45,973 nucleotides of DNA, taken from NCBI GenBank assembly GCA_903822545.1, contig CAIJPN010000004.1:1-45973 (forward strand), given 5' to 3'. Source of the stretch: an uncultured Anaerolineae bacterium. Lineage in GTDB: Bacteria > Chloroflexota > Anaerolineae > Anaerolineales > Villigracilaceae. The notes below the pieces were generated by a model, which was given only the letters and a program-made list of their open reading frames with translations, was not told the origin of the DNA and made no database searches. Position numbers and translations under genes: made by a program. This document shows positions 612 to 11,473 of this stretch, in pieces (within the stretch, counting starts at the first letter, position 1; each line of letters opens with the position of its first letter).

Positions 612-770
612 TTGCAGTTCAAAAGAACTACGCGAGATTGCCAAACAAATACCACACGGATTTCGATGCAAGCACGCACAAGGCGCAAGCACAGATACGA
701 GCTGGTCAATAGTGGCGAGTTGCCATCAATCCACATCGGCCATTTGTTTGTTGCGGGTTCCCGAGGACAA
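612..770 (+). pseudogene. Excisionase / helix-turn-helix remnant
   Basis: In one plus frame the peptide YELVNSGELPSIHIGH can be read (around 699-746). It closely matches the recognition-helix and wing pattern of excisionase-family HTH proteins, whose usual form is Y-x-L-I-x-S-G-E-L-P-A-x-x-I-G. A possible first helix, SSKELREIAKQI, appears just upstream in a different frame, so the gene seems frameshifted. The reading then runs into the integrase fragment in yet another frame. Such small proteins control integration and excision of mobile elements. The call rests on a short motif only, and the 5' limit is uncertain. Confidence 0.4.
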
Positions 771-1218
771 ACTCAATCTTTACCTGATAGGAAAGACCAG
801 GTACAGCCGCCGAACCATCAACATTGGCCCAGATTTGGTGGAGATGCTGACGGCGCATCGGCAAAACCAGATCGTCCAAAAGCAGTTTACGGGTAGCAAG
901 TGGCAGGATTGCGACCTGGTCTTCACCAACACCATAGGCAATCCACTCGATCAACGCAACATGCAGCGGGATTTCGACGCAATGCTTATGGACGCCGGCC
1001 TTGCCAAAATCCGCTTCCATGATCTTCGTCACAACGCTGCCTCCATGATGCTGGCGAACAGTACCTCCGTTGTGAGTGTTTCCCGTTACCTGGGGCACTC
1101 ATCCCCGCAAGTGACAATGGAAATCTATGCTCACCTGGTTCCGGGTGGTTTTGGTGACATTGTCAGGGCAATGAACAACCTGCCATTGGGTCAGACAATA
1201 GAAATCCCCGCAGTGTAA
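712..1218 (+). pseudogene. Tyrosine recombinase (integrase) C-terminal fragment
   Basis: The frame shows the C-terminal catalytic half of a phage-type tyrosine recombinase. A T-R-Y-S-R-R-T-I stretch is followed by a helix ending in LVEMLTAHR. Next come box II with H-D-L-R-H (in RFHDLRHNAASMML), the L-G-H-S-S motif, and the tyrosine nucleophile in TMEIYAHL. The SAM-like N-terminal core-binding domain and the box I arginine region are missing, and the first residues do not look like integrase, so this is a truncated, probably inactive gene of 168 codons. It lies on the plus strand, pointing at a tRNA-Arg gene about 150 bp away, as expected of an island integrase left beside its attachment site. 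A terminator follows the stop directly. Confidence 0.75.
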
Positions 1219-2217: not shown

Positions 2218-2658
2218 TTATATTCCGCAGCAGCCGTAGAGCGAGGCCCAGCCAAAACTGGTCACACGCAACGTGTAGTATTGCCCTTTCATGCAGGCAG
2301 GGTGGGTATAGGTGAGATTGTAGATTTTATAGAACAGCCGGTTTTCTACTTCGATGGTCTGTTCGAGCGCCTGCCAGTCAATTTCCACATCAAAACGGGT
2401 GATTTTCATATCGGGCGGGATGTCGACCAGGCGCGGCAGGCTGGAACCGCTCAGGTATTGCAGCTCATGCGCCTGTAAGTAGGCGATCACATTCTGCTTG
2501 TTTTCAAAACGCGCCTCCAGCCAGGCCCAGCCTTCCGGGCCGCAGTTTGGGAAGGCCAGTTTGGGAATCAGGCCAAAGGGCAGGGCAAAGTGCAGCAGCA
2601 CCAGGAAGACAATTGCCAGCAAAAACCAGCTGAAAAGTCGCCTGGGGGTAGGTTTCAT
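2218..2658 (-). CDS. Membrane-anchored hypothetical protein
   Basis: 146 residues, family not recognised. An N-terminal hydrophobic segment (about residues 9-30, after the basic stretch KPTPRR) should act as an uncleaved anchor or signal. The rest looks like a soluble extracytoplasmic domain with cysteines near residue 39 and a C-terminal CMKGQYY...GCCGI region holding three more. The start codon overlaps the stop codon of the molybdopterin oxidoreductase (ATGA at 2655-2658), so the two are translationally coupled. It may be an assembly or anchoring partner of that enzyme. This is inferred only from position and the cysteine content. It does not resemble DmsB, DmsC or a TorD-type chaperone. 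Confidence 0.6.
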   Translation of the reverse strand: MKPTPRRLFSWFLLAIVFLVLLHFALPFGLIPKLAFPNCGPEGWAWLEARFENKQNVIAYLQAHELQYLSGSSLPRLVDIPPDMKITRFDVEIDWQALEQTIEVENRLFYKIYNLTYTHPACMKGQYYTLRVTSFGWASLYGCCGI

Positions 2659-5036
2659 GGGGCTTTGCCCTTTCTGTATTTCTCAACCTGTACCATGATC
2701 GTATGCTGTGCCGTGCCAAAGGCGTAGGGCGTCCATTTTTCGGAGGTCAGGACATTGATGCAGCCGCCGAAGTCGACCCCACTCTGATTGGGAGCCCACC
2801 ACGCGCCCTGGGGGATATCGACCACGCCGGGCAGGATGCGTGGGGTGACTCTCGCGGGAATCACCACTTCGCCGCGCTCGTTCCAGGCGCGGACGAGGTC
2901 GCCGTCGCGGATTCCGCGCTCGGCGGCGTCGAGCGGGTTGATAAAAATCCGCTGCGGGAAGGCCTCGCCCAGCCAGTCGTTGTTGTCGTGGGTGGAGTGG
3001 ACGCGGTGCAGAGTGTGGTGGCCGATAGCCTGCAGGGGAAATTCTTTTTTGTACACGGATTTCACGGACGGACACGGATTTTCACGGATTTTTTCTTTTT
3101 GATTTTCTCCGTGTGAATCCGTGTAATCCGCGTAATCCGTGTCCCCAAATGGATGTTCCCACTCTTGAATATATTTCGGGATGGGCGGGATTTCGATTGG
3201 ATTGTTTCGGTCAAATAACTGCGTCGAAAAGATTTCGATTTTGCCGGAGGGGGTTTTTAACGGGAATTGCTCGGGATCGCGGCGAAAATCTTGGAAGGCG
3301 ATGGCGGGTTTGGTGACGGGGTTGGAGTAGGCGCCGATATTCGATACTAGAAATTCGTCGAGGGTGGGCAAATCGGGGAAACGGGTTGAGCGCCAAACCG
3401 ATAAACAATACTCCACCCAGGCTTTTTCGTCGCGGCCTTCGGTGTAGGCGTTGCCGATGCCGAGACGCTGGGCGATTTCGGCGCAGATTTGGTAGTCGGA
3501 TTTGCATTCGCCGGGCGGGTCAACCAGTTTGGGCTGGAGGATGACTTCATCGGAGTATTTCCAGCCGTCTTCCACACCCCAGGTTTCGAACTGGGTGCAG
3601 GCGGGCAGGATGATGTCGGCGAAGCGGGCGGTGGGGGTCAGGAAGTTGTCCTGGACAACAAGGAATTCGACTTTGGATTCATCGCGCAGGATTTCGGCGG
3701 AGCGGTTGACGTTAGCGTGCTGGTTGATCAGGCAGTTGGTGGCGACAGCGTAGATTAACTTGATGTCGCTGGTCAGGCTGGGGACGCCGGTGACGCCGTC
3801 AGCCTGGGTCATCCCGGCTATCGCCGGGACTTTGCTCTTTCCACGGAGGACGGCTTCGGTCCAGAGAAAGACGGGGATGGCCGCTTTAACGGGATTCTGC
3901 CCGGTGGGGAAAACAGTCCACAAACCGCCGCCATCCGGGGCTTGCAATCCCAATCCACTTGCCCAGCCGCCCGAAATCCCAAAATTGCCGGTTATGGCGG
4001 CCAGGACACACCCGGCGCGGACGACTTGCTCGCCATAGGCGCGGCGCTGCATGCCGTAGCCCTGGTAGAGCACGGCGGGGGTGAGCGTAGCGTATTCACG
4101 GGCGATGCGGGCGATGGTGGCGGCGGGGACGGCGGTGATGGCGGCGGCCCATTCGGGGTTTTTGGGTAAACCGTCGCGCGCGCCAAGCAGGTAGTCGGTG
4201 TAACTTTCGTCGTTTTCGTGGCCGGGGGGTAAATGGTCTTTGTCCCAGCCGAGGCAGTAGCGGTTGATGAAGGCGGTGTCGAGCAGACCTTCGGTGAGCA
4301 GCACGTAGGCCATGGCGGTCAGCATGGCGGCGTCGGTGCCGGGGCGGATGGGAATCCACTCGTCGGCCAGGGCGGCGGCGGAGAGCGAGTGACGCGGGTC
4401 GATACAGACGACTTTGGCCCCATTTTGGCGGGCGAGTTTGATGAAGTAATCGGAGTTGGTGCCGTCGCGCATTTCGGCGGGGTTCCAGCCCCACATCAGG
4501 ATGTAGCGGCTGTTGAGCCAGTCCTGGCGCTGGTTGCCGGTGACGAGCGTGCCCCAGACGGTGGGCGTGGCGGCGTTGATGGCGGCCCACGAGTAGGAGT
4601 TGTAGATGCCGAGGCAGCCGCCGTACAGGTTCAGCAGGCGGCGGGCGGTGTGCGAGCCGTTGAGTTGGTTGTAGGAGCCGGTGCCGTAGGGGACAAACAG
4701 GGCTTCGTTGCCGTAGGCGGCTTTGACGCGCTCGAACTGGGCGGCGATGGTGTCGAGGGCTTCATCCCAAGAAATGCGTGCGAAGTGCGCGGTGCCGCGT
4801 GCGCCGGTACGTTTGAGCGGATGGAGCAGCCGGTCGGGGTGGTACTGGCGGCGCAGATAGGCGCGTCCGCGCGGGCAGGCGCGCAGTTGCGGGGCGGCGA
4901 GGGTATCGGGGCGGTCATCGGTGTCGAGGCGGGTGATGCGTCCATTTTCAACATGCGCGATGAGCAGGCAGCGTCCGCCGCAGTTGTGGGCGGGGCAGCC
5001 GGTGCGGATGGTGGTCAGTGAGCAGTTATCAGTCAT
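2655..5036 (-). CDS. Molybdopterin oxidoreductase, DMSO-reductase family catalytic subunit
   Basis: 793 residues. The N-terminus has a [4Fe-4S] site with cysteines 14, 19, 23 and 54 (the last in ACPRG). The molybdenum-binding region includes YGTGSYNQLNGS and the stretch NSYSWAA around residues 146-152, placing a serine where DmsA/BisC-type enzymes have their Mo ligand. The C-terminal dinucleotide-binding domain ends with QGAWWAP, DFGGCINVLTSEKWTPYA and MVQVEKY. Members transfer oxygen atoms or electrons to S- or N-oxides and related substrates. The substrate here is unknown. No twin-arginine signal is visible, and no Fe-S (DmsB) or membrane (DmsC) subunit follows. Residues about 632-663 are encoded by an inserted palindromic repeat (separate entry). 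The ATG overlaps the final stop of the RAYT pseudogene, and a second diverged copy of this 5' end lies upstream, so the start may be displaced. Confidence 0.9.
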   Translation of the reverse strand: MTDNCSLTTIRTGCPAHNCGGRCLLIAHVENGRITRLDTDDRPDTLAAPQLRACPRGRAYLRRQYHPDRLLHPLKRTGARGTAHFARISWDEALDTIAAQFERVKAAYGNEALFVPYGTGSYNQLNGSHTARRLLNLYGGCLGIYNSYSWAAINAATPTVWGTLVTGNQRQDWLNSRYILMWGWNPAEMRDGTNSDYFIKLARQNGAKVVCIDPRHSLSAAALADEWIPIRPGTDAAMLTAMAYVLLTEGLLDTAFINRYCLGWDKDHLPPGHENDESYTDYLLGARDGLPKNPEWAAAITAVPAATIARIAREYATLTPAVLYQGYGMQRRAYGEQVVRAGCVLAAITGNFGISGGWASGLGLQAPDGGGLWTVFPTGQNPVKAAIPVFLWTEAVLRGKSKVPAIAGMTQADGVTGVPSLTSDIKLIYAVATNCLINQHANVNRSAEILRDESKVEFLVVQDNFLTPTARFADIILPACTQFETWGVEDGWKYSDEVILQPKLVDPPGECKSDYQICAEIAQRLGIGNAYTEGRDEKAWVEYCLSVWRSTRFPDLPTLDEFLVSNIGAYSNPVTKPAIAFQDFRRDPEQFPLKTPSGKIEIFSTQLFDRNNPIEIPPIPKYIQEWEHPFGDTDYADYTDSHGENQKEKIRENPCPSVKSVYKKEFPLQAIGHHTLHRVHSTHDNNDWLGEAFPQRIFINPLDAAERGIRDGDLVRAWNERGEVVIPARVTPRILPGVVDIPQGAWWAPNQSGVDFGGCINVLTSEKWTPYAFGTAQHTIMVQVEKYRKGKAP
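3051..3144. repeat. CACGGAT-type inverted repeat inserted in the molybdoenzyme gene
   Basis: A block of about 94 bp is built from CACGGAT units on its left side and ATCCGTG units on its right side, with an AT-rich centre (poly-T, GATTTTC). The outermost arms are ACACGGAT (3053-3060) and ATCCGTGT (3135-3142). On the coding strand it is read in frame as roughly 32 residues (such as TDSHGENQKEK and NPCPSVKSVYK), rich in charged residues and unlike the rest of the enzyme. It behaves like a small mobile palindromic element. Insertion length and phase have left the frame open. Confidence 0.75.
4969..5034 (-). repeat. Copy A of a 66-bp duplicated segment (molybdoenzyme 5' end)
   Basis: This segment encodes the first residues of the molybdopterin oxidoreductase, including the first Fe-S cysteines. 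By hand alignment it matches 5685-5750 in about 51 of 66 positions, without gaps and in the same orientation. An uninterrupted 18-base identity (CTGATAACTGCTCACTGA) lies at the 5' end. The RAYT pseudogene sits between the two copies. Confidence 0.7.
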
Positions 5037-5677
5037 CAGTTTTTTGGTTTGCGGGCTGGATTTTCGTTGTCATCGTTCCAGCGCGCCGGGTTGGATTCGA
5101 TGTAACGGGTGATGCGGTCTAATTCGGTTTCGTTACGGATGATGTGTTCTTAATAATTGCGCTGCCATAATTTGCCGTTGAACGGTTTCCAGCCCAATTG
5201 TTTGACGCCGCGGATGTATTCGTTGGTTGTCATGGTTTTGAACCATTGAATCATTTGCGACAATGGGGCGTTTGGGCGCTGATGGAAGACGGGTTGGGGC
5301 GAACCTGCGTGTTCGCCCCTTTGGCCGGGAAATATTTCTGCGGACGCGGGGTTATGGGCGATACCGGGGCAGACACGTGGGTCTGCCCCAATGCCGTCCC
5401 CAAGGGTTTCCTCGATAAAAATAATTCCATGAAAATGATTCGGCATGGGCATGAAAATATCCACGGTAACGTTGGGGAATTTGTTGGGCAATTCCAACCA
5501 CCAGCGGACAATCATTTCACCGCCGGGATTTAATTGCATCTCCCCATCCACCACCTCCCCAAACATCATTTCGCGCCCCTGTGTGACCAGGGTGACGAAA
5601 TACCCGCCCGCCTGGCGGTAATCGTAGCCTTTCAGGCGGATGGAGCGGCGGTGGTGGATTTTGGGGTCGAATTTCAT
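5036..5677 (-). pseudogene. REP-associated tyrosine transposase (RAYT), nonsense-interrupted
   Basis: The product begins MKFDPKIHHRRSIRLKGYDY and contains AGGYFVTLVTQGRE, the HUH-nuclease motif in MPMPNHFHGIIF (His-x-His as the metal site), and a late tyrosine in TMTTNEYIRGVKQLGW, the expected nucleophile. It belongs to the Y1/TnpA_REP family, single-strand nucleases related to IS200/IS605 transposases and linked to palindromic REP elements. The frame stops at a TAA near 5150, straight after KLWQRNY, but continues in the same phase as EHIIRNETELDRITRYIESN to a TGA at 5036-5038. That segment is the conserved C-terminal end of the family, where RNYYEHIIR is usual. One substitution, TAT to TAA, therefore explains the break. 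The N-terminal 175 residues keep both catalytic motifs, so partial activity cannot be excluded. Confidence 0.85.
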
Positions 5678-5684
5678 GGGTTTT

Positions 5685-5750
5685 CAGTACCCATTGCAGT
5701 TGCGGGCGAGGTAGCTGGTGCGGACAGTTTTCAGTGAGCAGTTATCAGCC
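5685..5750 (-). repeat. Copy B of the duplicated molybdoenzyme 5' segment
   Basis: Located directly upstream of the RAYT start. In the corresponding frame it reads DNCSLKTVRTSYLARNCNGY and then a stop, against DNCSLTTIRTGCPAHNCGGR in the intact gene. The Fe-S cysteines corresponding to 14 and 23 are lost, so this copy is dead. Part of it (CAGTGAGCAGTTATCAG on the plus strand) may also be a dispersed intergenic motif. Confidence 0.65.
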
Positions 5751-5825
5751 GTCGGTGGTCAGGGGGAGTGAAAAGGCTCAGATATTGGAGATGGAACTAA
5801 TAAAGAAAGGCAGTGCGAGATGAAC

Positions 5826-6023
5826 CTATTTTAGTTTTTTGTCAATCTCCTGTATTTTTAGTTTTGAGATGGTTGCAGATGCGGACTGATAATTTTCTTC
5901 ATAAGGACGATACCAAAATACTATAAGTTCAGATGCGCGATACAAAGCAACATCTAGCTTCTCATGCACCATGGGGTGAGGGTCATGCACTTTAGGTAGT
6001 AGTTCTCTTACACGCTTGACCAA
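5826..6023 (-). CDS. Short hypothetical protein or gene fragment
   Basis: 65 residues from a TTG. The frame stays open upstream for about 45 more codons (to a TGA near 6160) without an ATG, and reads sensibly there (AEIEAAKIALSDVRNSREC). The true gene was therefore probably longer and has lost its 5' end. The peptide is charged and helical in appearance, with LVKRVRELLPK and ELIVFWYRPYEENY. No family is recognised. It abuts the C-terminal remnant of a membrane protein on the other strand, suggesting a rearrangement joint near 6080. Confidence 0.3.
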   Translation of the reverse strand: MVKRVRELLPKVHDPHPMVHEKLDVALYRASELIVFWYRPYEENYQSASATISKLKIQEIDKKLK

Positions 6024-6062
6024 ATCTTTACATTCTCTACTATTTCTTACATCGGACAGGGC

Positions 6063-6194
6063 AATTTTTGCCGCTTCAATTTCCGCGTCGGCCTGTACGG
6101 TTTCGGGTTCGCCTTCGCCGCGCTGGTGTTGGTCTGGGCTTTTAACTCACCGGAACAGCGCGTGCCGCAAATGGGCACGCTGGGGCAGCATTAA
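6063..6194 (+). pseudogene. C-terminal remnant of a membrane protein
   Basis: Reading the plus strand up to the TAA at 6192-6194 gives a hydrophobic helix, LYGFGFAFAALVLVWAF, followed by a short polar tail NSPEQRVPQMGTLGQH. This looks like the last transmembrane helix and cytoplasmic tail of a transporter (MFS-like). Nothing upstream in the same frame continues the protein, since the opposite strand carries the hypothetical fragment. It is probably a leftover end of a deleted gene. The identification is weak because only one helix remains. Confidence 0.35.
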
Positions 6195-6208
6195 AAAATT
6201 GCCAGCGG

Positions 6209-9200
6209 CTATTCCTGCACTTCAAAATCGATCTTGAAACAAGTTCCGTTGCCGCTCTCAATGGACAGGGAACCGTCAATTTGTTGCACCAGCATCGATA
6301 CCAGCTGCATCCCAAAACCTGTTGAATTCTCAATCGAGAAAGTTTCAGGCAAGCCCACGCCATCATCGCCATAAACAATTGAGATCTTCTGGCCCTGCCG
6401 GGTAACCAGCACTGTGATGTTGCCATCCCGCCCCGGGAAGGCATATTTCATCGAATTGGAGGCCAGTTCGTTCAGGATAATGCCAATCGAGGAAAGCAGT
6501 TTGGCATCGAGAAAAATCTCATCCAACTGGGTTTTGAGCGTTATCGAATCCTTCTGGGGGAACAGGCGGATCACTTCTTCAAGCAGTGCCGGGATGTAAT
6601 CCTGGATAGATACTGCGCTAAAATCTTGCGAGCGATAGAGCTTGTCGTACAACACCATCATACTCTGCACCCGCCCCGAAGCGTCTTGCAGCGCTAATTT
6701 GGCGGGGTCATCATCACAAATCTCGGCCTGTAAATTTAAAAGGCTGGTGATGATGTTCATGTTGTTCTTTATGCGGTGATGCACTTCGCGCAGCAGCAAT
6801 TCTTTATCGTGCAGCAGGCTCCTGACCTGGTCCTCTACCTTTTTTTGCTCGGTAAGGTCGGTAATTACAGCAATGGAACCAGCCAGTTGGGATTCTTCGT
6901 ACATGCGCGGCACAGCTGTGATCAAAACCGGCGCAAGACTGCCATCAGCGCGAAGCAAGCTCGTTTCGTAAGTGCTGGTTTTGCCAGACTGGCGCAGCTT
7001 ACGCTGCGCTGCCAGTTCTGCCTGGAATTCAGGCAAAGTCACATCACTGGGGTGTTTGCCAACCAGGTCGTTGGTTTCGTATCCAAACAGCCGCGCATAT
7101 GCCGGGTTGACAAACTCAAAGCGCCCCTCACAGTCTGTAACGGTCAGGCCCTGCCCCATCAGGTTAATGATCTGGGTGGCAAAATCCCGCTGCTCCTGGA
7201 GTTCCTGCTCCATTTTCTTCCTTTCGGTGAGGTCAAAAAACATGGTCAGCAGGTGCGATTTGCCATCCAATTCGATCAACTCACCAGACATCAACCCTTC
7301 CATCAAAACACCATCGCGTGTATGGATTTTAAAAGGTTTGTTCTTCAGGCAACCATTTTCCCGGAATTCTTTCACCATTTCCTGGCGTTCAGCATTATCG
7401 CGGAAAAGCATCAACTCCACCGCCGATTTCCCGATCACATCTTCACGTTGATATCCCAGGGTAGCGCAGAAAGCATCGTTCACATCCACATAAATGCCTT
7501 CATTGAGGGTTGAAATCGCCATCAGCGATGAATTCATTCGAAACGCCTTTGCAAATTTTTCTTCCGAACGTTTTAACGCCGAAATATCTTTGGTTACGCC
7601 GAACAACGCATCCTGCCCATTCCATTTTCCTTTGGTAATATACGTTTCTACTTCAATCAGGCCACCAAGCTTGTCCATGACAGGCACGGGGCATTCGCGG
7701 CGCTTCCCAGATAACATATCCATCACAATCTGCCCGGCTTCGGCCCGGCGCGCCGGGGGGTGAACCATCAAGACATGCTGCCCGGCCAACTCTTCTTCTA
7801 TGTACCTGAGCCGTTTGCAGGCAGTAGCATTGGCCTTGATAATGTAGCCATTCGCATCCAGCACAAAAAGCAGATCATCGACACCATTAAAAAATGTCTG
7901 GAAGTTGTTTTCGCTCTGGCGCAGGGCCTGCTCAGCTTGCCGGCGTTCAGTAACATTGCTGATAAAACCTACCAGGTAGCGAAGCTGCCCATCAGCGTTG
8001 GGAATAGCGCGCAACACCAGTTCCCCCACAAACGTGCTGCCATCCTTGCGCTGGTACACACTCTCAAATACGTTCACTTCCGGGTGGGCGGCCTTTATAC
8101 GCAAGATTTCATTACGGCGATTGGGATCAGCGAAAATCTCTGTGGCAATATTTTTGATTGAAGTACGCACATCTGCGGGCGATTCATAGCCAAACATGGC
8201 AGCAAAAGCCGGATTGACATCAAATACCGAACTACCATCCAGGCTGGATTGAAAAATCGCCACCGGGGCGTTTTCAAACAAATCATGATAGCGTTTCTCG
8301 CTCTTCATGAGCGCTTGCTCGAATTGCTTGCTCTGACTGATATCCTGAATCATCCAAATGGAACCATCTGATGGCCGATCAACATCAATCAAGTGCCCGG
8401 TAAGCCGGCACCAGAAGCGTGAGCCATTCTTCTTTTTCATTTCCACTTCCCTGCTATAGACTTTCCCCTGAGCAAGGTGTGCGAATGATTCATCCCCGAA
8501 CCGTTCAAAATCAGCACGATCTGCGTAAAATACAGACGTTTCCAGACCTGTGGTTTCGCCGGCATGGTAACCAAACATCTCATCGTGGGCAACATTCGCC
8601 CACTCAATCTTGCGATTGCGGACATGGCTGATCCCTGCTGTCACCGTGTCTAAAATCACGCGCAGCTGGCTGGCTAGCCGTTGGATGTACTCATCGGCTT
8701 TTTTACGCTCGGTAATATCTTGGTGCGTGCCATACATTAGCTCTGGTTTGCCGTCAGCGATCCAGCTTGCCACACGGCCACGATCAAGCACCCAAACCCA
8801 TTCCCCGTTCTTATGACGCATGCGCGCTTCACACTGGTAGTAACCCACTTCACCGGCAAAGTGCCGGTTCAATTGTTCTTCCGAAGCTTTCAAATCATCG
8901 GGATGGGTGAACCTGATCCAGGTGTCGATGGATACGGGTGAGATTTCTTCGAGGGTGTAGCCGATGATATTGGCCCAGCGCTCATTGAAAACAGTGCTCC
9001 CGGTCTGGATATTCCATTCCCAGGTGCCCGAGTTGGTTCCTCGCAGGATGTTATCCAGTTTCTCCTTTTCTACTGCCAGGGCCTGCTCAGCCTGTTTGCG
9101 CGCGGTAATATCATGGATGATGGAGTACAGCAGTTGCCGCTCACCGACTTGCAGGGGCGTAGAATATACTTCCACATCACAAATTTGTCCCGAAGCCAGG

Positions 9201-11473
9201 CGGTGCTTGAAGATGAAATAATTGCGCTGTTTTTTTTGCGCCAAATCCATTTCTACGTGGGTCTGCTCTGGCGTGAGCATATTAATCTGGTTTATGTTCA
9301 TCGCCTGGAGGGTTTCAACCGGGTAACCATAAAAGCGCGATGCGGCCAGGTTGGCCTGGACGATATCGCCGCCAACCGGATCAACCAGTAATTTGGCAGC
9401 CGAATGTTCAACGAACATTTGCCGGTACAGGCGTTCGCTTTCCAGCCGGGCGCGGTCGGCCTGCTCACGTTCGGTGACATCCTGTACTGTGCCCGTCACA
9501 GCCAGGACGCGTCCATTCTCATCGCTTAACACCCTGGCACGTTCCAGCACATTGCGCACTTCGCCGGTCGGGCGCACCACTCGGTGACCAATTTCCATAT
9601 CGGCCTGCCCTGCCAGCATTTGCTCGCGCATCTGGATGAACGACTCATAATCATCCGGGTGAATGGTTTTTTCAAAATTTTCGGCGGTCACCGCAAAGGT
9701 TTGCGGGTCAACGCCAAAGATGCGGAAAATTTCATCAGACCAGGTCAGGCGATTGGTCAAGACATCCCAATGCCACGAACCCAGGTGCGCTATGCGCTGC
9801 GCATCTTTGAGCATGAGGACGCTCTGGCGGTGATCTTCAATAGCTTGTTTCTGCTGGGTGATATCGATGATGCTGGCAATAAAATACAGGGGAGCGTTTT
9901 GGTTGCCGCGCACCAGCACGATATTGAGATATACCCAGACGATCGAGCCATTTCGATGGAAATAGCGTTTTTCGAACTGGTAGGCATCATGCTCCCCGGC
10001 CAGCAGGCTGCGAATGCTTTCGTTGCTGATGGACAGATCGTCGGGATGGGTAATATCGCGGAAGTTGACCTGGCACAATTCTTCGGTGGAATATCCCAGC
10101 ATCCTGGCAAACGCGGCATTGGCTTTGATGAACTTTCCATCTGGCGATGTCAACACGTAACCCGCCATGGTTTTCTCGAAAATCATTTGGAAGCTGGCAT
10201 CGCTTTCATCATAGCTGCGTTTTAGCCTGGCTTCGGCCCGCTTGCGTTGGGTAATATCGCTGAAGGAGACTGCGACACCATCGCCCAGTTTGACGGTCAT
10301 GTTGCGAAACCAGCCGGAGACATTGCCAGACTTATACTCCTCTTCCATTTCGTTCCCCTGGCCGGTTTCTACGATGCGTGTATAGCGCTCGAACTGGGCT
10401 TTGTTTTCAAGGTTGCCGGGCAAAACTTGCAAAAGACGCTGACCAACCAGTTTTTCGCGCGGTTGTTTCAAAATCTGACAGGCCACCGGGTTGGCATAGG
10501 TCCAGATAAAATCTACAATCCGGTTATTTTCATCGCGGATGCAGCGCAGCATGGTAAAAGCGTCCAGCGAAATCTCCTGCGCGGCGCGAAAGCGTTCTTC
10601 GCTCTCCTGCAAAGCCGTAAGGGCCTGCGAGTGGGCAATTTGTTCTTTTTCCAGCCGGTTTGTTTGGTCAGCCAGGTGGTTTTGCAACTCCAAATTCAGG
10701 CGTTCGATTTCCAGGGTGGCCTGTTGGCGCTCGGTGATATCACGAATGATCACTTGTGAGGCAGGTTTGCCCTGGTATTGGATGGAGGTGGTAATCGCTT
10801 CAATATTTATGATGTGCCCATCCAGGGTGATAAGCTTCTCATCCAAAATGGTGGATGACTGGTGTTCTTCATAGCTGCGGCGTATACGTTCGGCAACAAT
10901 CTCGTGATAATCGGGATGGACAAACTGCATGTAGGGCTTGCCAACCAGGTCTTCGGGGCCGCTGGCATGTAAAAGTTTGACCAGCGCAGTGTTAACATAT
11001 GCCAAGTTGCCATCAAAATGGATGGCAAGGCTGTCGGGCGAATATTCGACCAGTGTCCGATAGCGGTCTTCACTCTCCCGCAGCTGCATATGAGCCGAAT
11101 GGAGCCGAAAAGCCATCTTGATGGATACCAGCAGGACTGTGGGGCTGCTGTTTTTAACCACGTAACCGTACGAGGTGATGGCTTCGGTTTTTTCGACGAT
11201 CTCTTTTTCGGTATGAGATGAAAGGAAAACAATGGGGATATCATGCGTCTGCAAAATCTGGCTGGCGGCCTGGGTGCCATCCATCCCCTTACCAAGATTA
11301 ATATCCATCAAAATAAGATCAACCGGCTGGTTTTTACTGCAAACCAGATTGACAGCCTTTTCACCGCTGAGAACATGGAGCACCTTATAACCTTCTTTTT
11401 CCAACAATCGTTTTTCCCCAGCGGCAATCAGGGCTTCGTCTTCAACGAGAAGTATTGTTTTAAGGTCAGGCAT
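6209..11473 (-). CDS. Giant sensor histidine kinase: REC + 11 PAS + HisKA_2 + HATPase
   Basis: 1754 residues with no transmembrane segment, so cytoplasmic. Residues 1-120 form a receiver domain with the acidic pair in LLVEDEAL, the phospho-acceptor in LILMDINLG and the lysine in YVVKNSSP. Eleven PAS/PAC units follow (about 130-1545), most closing with a D-I-T-E-R-like motif and linked by short helices (one longer coiled coil after the first). From about 1550 comes a HisKA_2 dimerisation domain with ELLLREVHHRIKNN (candidate phospho-His near 1566). The ATPase domain shows N-E-L-A-S-N, D-D-G-V-G and G-F-G-M. Such proteins sense small ligands, redox state or light through PAS cofactors and phosphorylate a separate regulator. 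The start is well supported: ATG preceded by GGAGGAG. It is transcribed alone, with no adjacent response regulator. Confidence 0.92.
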   Translation of the reverse strand: MPDLKTILLVEDEALIAAGEKRLLEKEGYKVLHVLSGEKAVNLVCSKNQPVDLILMDINLGKGMDGTQAASQILQTHDIPIVFLSSHTEKEIVEKTEAITSYGYVVKNSSPTVLLVSIKMAFRLHSAHMQLRESEDRYRTLVEYSPDSLAIHFDGNLAYVNTALVKLLHASGPEDLVGKPYMQFVHPDYHEIVAERIRRSYEEHQSSTILDEKLITLDGHIINIEAITTSIQYQGKPASQVIIRDITERQQATLEIERLNLELQNHLADQTNRLEKEQIAHSQALTALQESEERFRAAQEISLDAFTMLRCIRDENNRIVDFIWTYANPVACQILKQPREKLVGQRLLQVLPGNLENKAQFERYTRIVETGQGNEMEEEYKSGNVSGWFRNMTVKLGDGVAVSFSDITQRKRAEARLKRSYDESDASFQMIFEKTMAGYVLTSPDGKFIKANAAFARMLGYSTEELCQVNFRDITHPDDLSISNESIRSLLAGEHDAYQFEKRYFHRNGSIVWVYLNIVLVRGNQNAPLYFIASIIDITQQKQAIEDHRQSVLMLKDAQRIAHLGSWHWDVLTNRLTWSDEIFRIFGVDPQTFAVTAENFEKTIHPDDYESFIQMREQMLAGQADMEIGHRVVRPTGEVRNVLERARVLSDENGRVLAVTGTVQDVTEREQADRARLESERLYRQMFVEHSAAKLLVDPVGGDIVQANLAASRFYGYPVETLQAMNINQINMLTPEQTHVEMDLAQKKQRNYFIFKHRLASGQICDVEVYSTPLQVGERQLLYSIIHDITARKQAEQALAVEKEKLDNILRGTNSGTWEWNIQTGSTVFNERWANIIGYTLEEISPVSIDTWIRFTHPDDLKASEEQLNRHFAGEVGYYQCEARMRHKNGEWVWVLDRGRVASWIADGKPELMYGTHQDITERKKADEYIQRLASQLRVILDTVTAGISHVRNRKIEWANVAHDEMFGYHAGETTGLETSVFYADRADFERFGDESFAHLAQGKVYSREVEMKKKNGSRFWCRLTGHLIDVDRPSDGSIWMIQDISQSKQFEQALMKSEKRYHDLFENAPVAIFQSSLDGSSVFDVNPAFAAMFGYESPADVRTSIKNIATEIFADPNRRNEILRIKAAHPEVNVFESVYQRKDGSTFVGELVLRAIPNADGQLRYLVGFISNVTERRQAEQALRQSENNFQTFFNGVDDLLFVLDANGYIIKANATACKRLRYIEEELAGQHVLMVHPPARRAEAGQIVMDMLSGKRRECPVPVMDKLGGLIEVETYITKGKWNGQDALFGVTKDISALKRSEEKFAKAFRMNSSLMAISTLNEGIYVDVNDAFCATLGYQREDVIGKSAVELMLFRDNAERQEMVKEFRENGCLKNKPFKIHTRDGVLMEGLMSGELIELDGKSHLLTMFFDLTERKKMEQELQEQRDFATQIINLMGQGLTVTDCEGRFEFVNPAYARLFGYETNDLVGKHPSDVTLPEFQAELAAQRKLRQSGKTSTYETSLLRADGSLAPVLITAVPRMYEESQLAGSIAVITDLTEQKKVEDQVRSLLHDKELLLREVHHRIKNNMNIITSLLNLQAEICDDDPAKLALQDASGRVQSMMVLYDKLYRSQDFSAVSIQDYIPALLEEVIRLFPQKDSITLKTQLDEIFLDAKLLSSIGIILNELASNSMKYAFPGRDGNITVLVTRQGQKISIVYGDDGVGLPETFSIENSTGFGMQLVSMLVQQIDGSLSIESGNGTCFKIDFEVQE

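What the first reader, a model, noticed from the sequence alone, without database searches (positions are those of the whole stretch)
4969..5750. RAYT transposase pseudogene lodged between two diverged copies of the host gene's 5' end
Bases 5685-5750 and 4969-5034 match in about 51 of 66 positions in the same orientation. The inner copy encodes the working N-terminus of the molybdoenzyme, and the outer one has lost key cysteines. The transposase gene fills the space between and its final stop overlaps the molybdoenzyme ATG. Target duplication of this length is not a known result of RAYT activity. The structure could be an insertion with gene-start capture, or the scar of a tandem gene duplication.
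Basis: partly seen in the sequence, partly recalled or inferred. Interest (0 to 1): 0.58.

Follow-up and report, generated by a model that had tools for sequence, protein, structure and literature searches.

The report
Leftover front end of dmsA gene
A broken transposase gene sits between an intact anaerobic-respiration gene and a decayed second copy of that gene's front end; some related bacteria carry similar leftover front ends with other genes in between, so this looks like a scar of gene rearrangement rather than the work of the transposase.

Summary
In detail: 5685-5750 and 4969-5034 match in 51 of 66 positions, same strand, beyond chance. About 18 of the 66 bases are a dispersed TAACTGA-type heptamer (30 near-matches in the genome, these two included; control 0); the rest is specific to this gene, a DmsA homologue (TIGR02166). 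Partial copies of the dmsA 5' end also lie upstream of dmsA in G104, G118 and G150, and alone near a contig end in G172, with a HepT-like gene, an antitoxin-like remnant or about 120 bases in between. RAYT is therefore not needed to make such stubs. The RAYT looks like an old neighbour: its two nearest relatives found, in G170 and G272, also adjoin dmsA or its start, though few dmsA loci have one. This dmsA is an orphan: 28 of 29 dmsA genomes in the family carry dmsBC, this one does not; yet it is conserved (omega 0.22, the highest of 15 pairs). Best reading: the outer copy is a 5' stub of an older dmsA, left by one-sided or duplicative recombination; the order of events is unresolved.

The parts
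5685..5750 (-). Outer copy: decayed 5' stub of dmsA (heptamer tract plus about the first 15 codons of the conserved core); repeat as found by tool 5696-5756
   Evidence: 51/66 identity with the inner copy; 61-nt repeat at 82%; only match of that length in the own genome is the inner copy
5731..5748 (-). TAACTGA-type heptamer tract in the outer copy
   Evidence: exact 18-mer CTGATAACTGCTCACTGA; 30 places at up to 2 mismatches in the genome (both window copies included), 0 in the control
5150..5677 (-). RAYT-like ORF cut short by an in-frame TAA before the conserved YIxxNP tyrosine; frame would otherwise end at 5036
   Evidence: window ORF itself has no Pfam or NCBIfam match; an intact relative in G170 matches NF047646 (56 bits, cut-off 80) and PF01797 (22.3, cut-off 23); YIxxNP conserved in 22 of 22 aligned sequences
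4969..5034 (-). Inner copy: the gene's present 5' end
5015..5032 (-). Heptamer tract in the inner copy; with the bases just before it, it supplies the stop of the RAYT frame, the dmsA ATG and the first codons
   Evidence: most orthologues align only from residue 5-9
2655..5036 (-). dmsA-like molybdoenzyme, 793 aa, intact; no TAT signal noticed by eye
   Evidence: TIGR02166 822.6 bits, cut-off 777.7; PF04879, PF00384, PF01568; omega 0.22 vs G104
2218..2658 (-). Unknown 146-aa ORF where relatives have dmsBC
   Evidence: no Pfam or NCBIfam match; no dmsBC in the window or in the genome at E<=1e-60

Best explanation
The outer copy is the 5' stub of an older dmsA allele. A segment carrying the present dmsA, with its RAYT neighbour upstream, was joined to the early coding region of that older allele by one-sided recombination (homologous in or beyond the gene, illegitimate at the stub) or by an equivalent duplication. 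The stub then decayed, the RAYT frame gained a stop codon, dmsBC and the usual upstream motif were lost or never came along, and a heptamer tract at the RAYT/dmsA junction now supplies the RAYT stop and the dmsA start. Shown: the stub, the order of parts, similar stubs in four relatives, RAYT beside dmsA elsewhere, absence of dmsBC and of the upstream motif. Inferred: the recombination mechanism and the order of events.
For: Stubs beside dmsA in G000, G104, G118 and G150 (4 of 27 family genomes with a located gene start; the window's own is too decayed for the pattern and is counted) and one in G172, each upstream and on the same strand as dmsA where dmsA is next to it, each ending within about 30 codons. 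In G150 the stub resembles other alleles (61/72 to G175 and G170) more than its own gene (55/72, rank 7). RAYTs of the window, G170 and G272 form a clade (0.972) and each adjoins dmsA or a stretch matching a dmsA start; L076 keeps a RAYT relic upstream of its dmsA. dmsBC is present in 28 of 29 dmsA genomes, absent at E<=1e-60 only here. Control: of 196 ORFs, 4 had an upstream partial copy at E<=1e-5 and 3 of the 4 are dmsA, but several loci were chosen because they have stubs.
Against: In this genome the stub is as close to its own gene (27/34) as to G104 and G120 (27/34 each), so a displaced foreign allele is not shown here. RAYT beside dmsA was found in the family only in the window and G170; the window's dmsA is closer to G104, G102, G118, G120 and G013, with no RAYT found within 1.5 kb upstream, than to G170, so the linkage was lost often, transferred, or arose more than once. 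All stubs are short, which random joining would not favour. Two stubs are weak as protein matches (G118 E 0.011, G104 E 0.027) and rest on DNA identity. No second genome of the genus was among those searched.
Confidence: 0.48

Rival explanations
1. Local duplication within one genome: a small tandem duplication spanning the dmsA start, or a whole-gene tandem duplication later deleted, left a 5' stub; the RAYT was part of the duplicated unit or came in later.
For: Outer and inner are of the same allele type (27/34, tied best) and share an exact 18-base heptamer stretch. In G118 stub and gene cores lie only 230 bases apart.
Against: No RAYT remnant found in 5690-9000 upstream of the outer copy (best E 1.0). 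The RAYT frame fills the gap to within 7-18 bases on one side and none on the other, a coincidence if it came later. The G150 stub is not closest to its own gene. The five stubs end within about 30 codons, unlike random deletion of a 790-codon gene.
Confidence: 0.3
2. The first ~30 codons of dmsA are a recurrent attachment-like site for small selfish cassettes (RAYT, HepT, PIN toxin genes), the gene start being regenerated on insertion.
For: By eye, stubs end near two points (about CAACTGCGG in the window and G104; about CACATCGAA in G172 and G150, loosely in G118), and hairpin-ended toxin-antitoxin-like genes face the stub end in G104 and G172/G150. Integration within the 5' end of a gene is described for dusA (PMC4482086: listing and start of abstract seen).
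Against: No element with a second core copy beyond the four stubs was found in 152 genomes at up to 1 mismatch. Stub and gene 5' ends differ in type in G118 and G150. No integrase was seen between the copies; the one recombinase noticed in the window is a fragment at 712-1218 on the far side of dmsA.
Confidence: 0.1
3. RAYT insertion made a 66-base target duplication or captured the gene start.
For: The RAYT lies exactly between the copies.
Against: [quoted passage not shown] Stubs occur without RAYT. In G170 the RAYT adjoins dmsA with no second copy detected. The copies differ at 15 of 66.
Confidence: 0.07
4. The similarity is only a dispersed heptamer repeat plus chance.
For: 18 of the 66 bases are a dispersed repeat.
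Against: The 46 bases after the heptamer still match 32/46 against a next best of 27/46 in the window, and the outer frame reads KTVRTSYLARNCNG against TTIRTGCPAHNCGG.
Confidence: 0.02

Closest known systems
Homology-facilitated illegitimate recombination leaving remnants of displaced genes (proposed for Vibrio cholerae T6SS immunity gene arrays, PMC5361080; passages seen)
   Same: A remnant of a displaced gene stays beside the incoming homologous module, and the process can repeat
   Different: Here the remnant is a 5' stub upstream of a respiratory molybdoenzyme gene, with selfish genes in between; the mechanism is not demonstrated here (and only proposed there)
TAACTGA direct repeats (MacGregor 2015, PMC4679880; abstract, passages and section 15 read)
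   Same: TAACTGA-like heptamers in forward orientation that end an upstream ORF and adjoin the next start codon
   Different: Here degenerate units in a genome whose relatives are Chloroflexota; the word Chloroflexi does not occur in that paper. Here the tract also encodes the start codon and first codons
RAYT / REP-associated tyrosine transposases (PMC2817692; passages seen)
   Same: HUH motif NHFHG, YIxxNP region, below-cut-off match of an intact relative to NF047646
   Different: No flanking inverted repeat pair found; truncated; adjoins dmsA
DmsA/YnfE reductase A subunit (TIGR02166)
   Same: Score above the curated cut-off, three Pfam domains
   Different: No dmsBC found in the genome at E<=1e-60; no TAT signal noticed

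Membership tests
RAYT (REP-associated tyrosine transposase) | HUH motif | tested here: met
   NHFHG in the window copy; H..H columns conserved except one Tyr in the second His column among 22
RAYT (REP-associated tyrosine transposase) | nucleophilic tyrosine beside the C-terminal NP motif | tested here: not met
   YIESNP is encoded only beyond the in-frame TAA; conserved in 22 of 22 aligned frames; that this is the nucleophile follows the passage
RAYT (REP-associated tyrosine transposase) | curated family score | tested here: inconclusive
   G170 relative: NF047646 56 bits (cut-off 80), PF01797 22.3 (cut-off 23); window ORF no match
RAYT (REP-associated tyrosine transposase) | two flanking inverted REPs, abundant in the genome | tested here: not met
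   no inverted repeats of at least 14 bases in 4900-5900; the palindrome at 5296-5319 inside the ORF is the only copy in the genome at up to 2 mismatches
DmsA/YnfE | TIGR02166 above cut-off | tested here: met
   822.6 vs 777.7 bits
DmsA/YnfE | DmsB and DmsC partners | tested here: not met
   no dmsBC in the own genome at E<=1e-60 or in the window
TAACTGA direct repeats | dispersed tracts of TAACTGA-like heptamers | tested here: met
   30 places vs 0 control for one 18-mer at up to 2 mismatches; perfect TAACTGA tandem copies were not counted
Insertion with target duplication | identical copies flanking the insert, made by the insert | tested here: not met
   copies differ at 15 of 66; similar stubs occur without RAYT. 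An old duplication that later diverged is not excluded by identity alone

The most novel reading that the evidence does not exclude
The stretch of dmsA that encodes its iron-sulphur motif acts as a recurrent docking site in this bacterial family: small selfish cassettes (RAYT, HepT-like, PIN toxin modules) enter there and the gene start is regenerated, leaving a 5' stub each time.
Probability: 0.12. Interest if true: 0.6.

Novelty: new variant of a known kind. Interest (0 to 1): 0.36.

Why it matters
Short 5' stubs of one respiratory gene in five genomes of a family, with different selfish genes beside them, would offer a readable record of how a patchily distributed gene is displaced and re-acquired. 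The locus also shows a dispersed heptamer supplying the start codon of a conserved enzyme that has lost its usual operon partner.

Tried and rejected
RAYT target duplication, and chance or dispersed repeat alone, were rejected as above. Heptamers as the RAYT's own REP: 0 of 21 RAYT copies had the heptamer pattern within 300 bases (for one copy, L179, only the start side was examined). A diversity-generating retroelement was set aside by thought only, not tested. A dispersed palindrome inserted in the RAYT ORF: the one at 5296-5319 is the only copy in the genome at up to 2 mismatches. A weak possible stub in G152 (L158, 27 bases) was not counted; nor was a 30-base match on the opposite strand in L157, nor a 25-bit second peptide hit in L075/L156. 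Second hits in the more distant loci L120, L123, L125, L126, L132 and L135 look like starts of neighbouring reductase genes and were not followed. Three loci with dmsBC but little or no dmsA (G149, G011, G061) were fetched; only the last residues of dmsA were found in G061 and none in the other two stretches. The RAYT tree used 18 of the 29 new family loci, two other copies of the own genome, G272 and the window.
Full report
What is there. On the minus strand, in order: a decayed 5' copy of a molybdoenzyme gene (5685-5750), a RAYT-like pseudogene (5150-5677, frame running on to 5036), and the intact gene (5036-2655). The two 5' copies match in 51 of 66 positions and 13 of 15 differences are transitions. 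The repeat is 61 bases at 82%, copies 716 bases apart. In the 5.5 Mb own genome the outer copy matches at that length only the inner one (E 1.5e-10); 15 further matches are 14-32 bases long. The gene is a DmsA/YnfE homologue: TIGR02166, 822.6 bits against a cut-off of 777.7, with PF04879, PF00384 and PF01568.

The heptamer. CTGATAACTGCTCACTGA, present in both copies, occurs at 30 places in the genome at up to 2 mismatches, 5 of them exact, the two window copies included, against 0 for the reversed control. It resembles the TAACTGA direct repeats described in Beggiatoaceae, Cyanobacteria and Bacteroidetes (PMC4679880; abstract, passages and section 15 seen). [quoted passage not shown] One search for papers holding both TAACTGA and Chloroflexi found none in the held library. 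In the window the tract gives the RAYT frame its stop and dmsA its ATG and first codons. Orthologue alignments begin at residue 1-9 of the window protein, most at 5-9. DNA homology reaching upstream of the TIRTGC codons was seen in the heptamer-bearing starts of G120 (L154/L073) and G062 (L156/L075), in the G118 stub, and in G170 by way of its RAYT.

Stubs in relatives. Of 152 family genomes, 29 hold dmsA at E<=1e-200. A degenerate pattern for the core, at up to 1 mismatch, found 31 places in 28 genomes, with 1 hit in the control. 27 are gene starts. 4 are extra copies: in G104, G118 and G150 upstream of the gene (cores 824, 230 and 422 bases apart), and in G172 on a contig that ends about 690 bases after the stub. 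With the window's own (too decayed for the pattern) this makes five genomes with a stub, four of them among the 27 with a located gene start. As DNA matches the G118 stub is 78% over 72 bases and the G104 stub 91% over 34 bases; as peptides they are weak (E 0.011 and 0.027), while those of G150 and G172 are strong (1.9e-10 and 2.1e-15). Between stub and gene lie a HepT-like gene in G104 (PF01934, 84.1 bits), an antitoxin-like remnant in G150, about 120 bases in G118, and the RAYT in the window. In G172 a PIN gene (PF01850, 40.5 bits) follows the stub; G150 and G172 share 79% identity over 319 bases from the stub onward. The antitoxin naming rests on position and similarity of reading frames only. 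A further piece of dmsA in G172, residues 646-793 in G118 numbering, lies with dmsBC on another contig. A short-peptide tblastn over the fetched flanks (1.5-6 kb, where present) gave no further convincing stub, L072 being the same record as G118 (the hits set aside are listed under Tried and rejected). As a control, 196 ORFs of at least 150 aa in the window and 22 other loci (three redundant loci dropped beforehand) were tested for an upstream partial copy: at E<=1e-5 four had one, three of them dmsA and one another ORF in L235. Several of these loci were picked because they had stubs, so 4 of 27 is the fairer count.

Whose stub. Scored against 28 gene starts, the G150 stub is closer to G175 and G170 (61/72 each) than to its own gene (55/72, rank 7). 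The G104 stub ranks its own gene 14th (32/38 vs 34/38, a small difference), the G118 stub 4th (34/53 vs 35/53). The window stub is tied between its own gene, G104 and G120 (27/34). So a different, displaced allele is suggested for G150 and open for the window.

The RAYT. Its best match among the 152 family genomes (77%) lies in G170; its frame ends about 50 bases before the dmsA ATG, same strand. In a tree of 22 RAYTs the window copy groups with G170 (0.935) and then G272 (0.972). The G272 copy was found among 400 genomes of the order; its contig ends just after the RAYT in a stretch that matches the L076 dmsA start in 22 of 28 positions (0 of 20,000 random stretches scored as high). L076 keeps a RAYT relic upstream of its dmsA (85% over 67 bases). 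Against this stands that no other dmsA locus examined had such a RAYT: in the 80 loci only L076 and L097 (same contig as G170) matched, in the 1.5 kb flanks of family orthologues only G170. The window's dmsA is closer to five genomes without one than to G170. So an old linkage, lost often or transferred, is likely but not proven. Between window and G170 RAYT omega is 0.19 at dS 0.92, so the stop is probably late. It lies before the YIxxNP tyrosine, conserved in 22 of 22. The intact G170 relative scores below both curated cut-offs and no flanking inverted repeat pair was found, so the name RAYT is likely, not certain.

An orphan dmsA. In relatives dmsA is followed by a fused dmsBC-like gene. 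Of the 29 dmsA genomes, 28 have dmsBC at E<=1e-60 somewhere in the genome; the window's does not. In G120, which shares the heptamer start, dmsA and dmsBC are on separate contigs with no trace of each other at the facing ends, and an IS66-type transposase (176.1 bits, cut-off 180) precedes dmsA. An upstream motif (ATCACTA, 18-30 bases, TASACT) precedes 15 of 25 orthologues, is missing in 10, and occurs 0 times in the window; reading it as an FNR-type promoter is my recall, untested. The window gene shows omega 0.22 against G104, still low but the highest of 15 pairs (0.12-0.22).

Mechanism. I judge one-sided recombination or an equivalent duplication in the early coding region most likely (0.48), local duplication next (0.30). 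Homology-facilitated illegitimate recombination is proposed for displaced gene modules in Vibrio cholerae (PMC5361080, passages). RAYT target duplication is disfavoured: known IS200/IS605 members make no larger target duplications (PMC2817692, passage), and stubs occur without RAYT. The age can only be bracketed: 15/66 differences between the copies against a silent difference of 0.28 per site between window and G104 dmsA.

Noticed in passing
712-1218 (+): Fragment of a tyrosine recombinase (PF00589, 60.1 bits; TIGR02224 53.9 bits, far below its cut-off) on the far side of dmsA.
   Followed up: partly
dmsA around residues 632-662: Variable stretch at which the alignment of several orthologues breaks; in G172 (L247) a repeat array lies near the same place beside a contig end.
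   Followed up: no
L073 near its 3' end and L248 about 110-140 (G120): The stretch CTTTAGTTTCCGCTAA seen by eye in opposite orientation near the ends where dmsA and dmsBC are separated, perhaps an insertion or inversion boundary.
   Followed up: no
6209-11473 (-): A 1754-aa ORF with repeated PAS-like stretches and a histidine-kinase-like end, upstream of the stub (named by eye).
   Followed up: no
G033 and G138 dmsA: In both genomes a contig starts at dmsA residue 299, which may mark a repeat that breaks assemblies.
   Followed up: no
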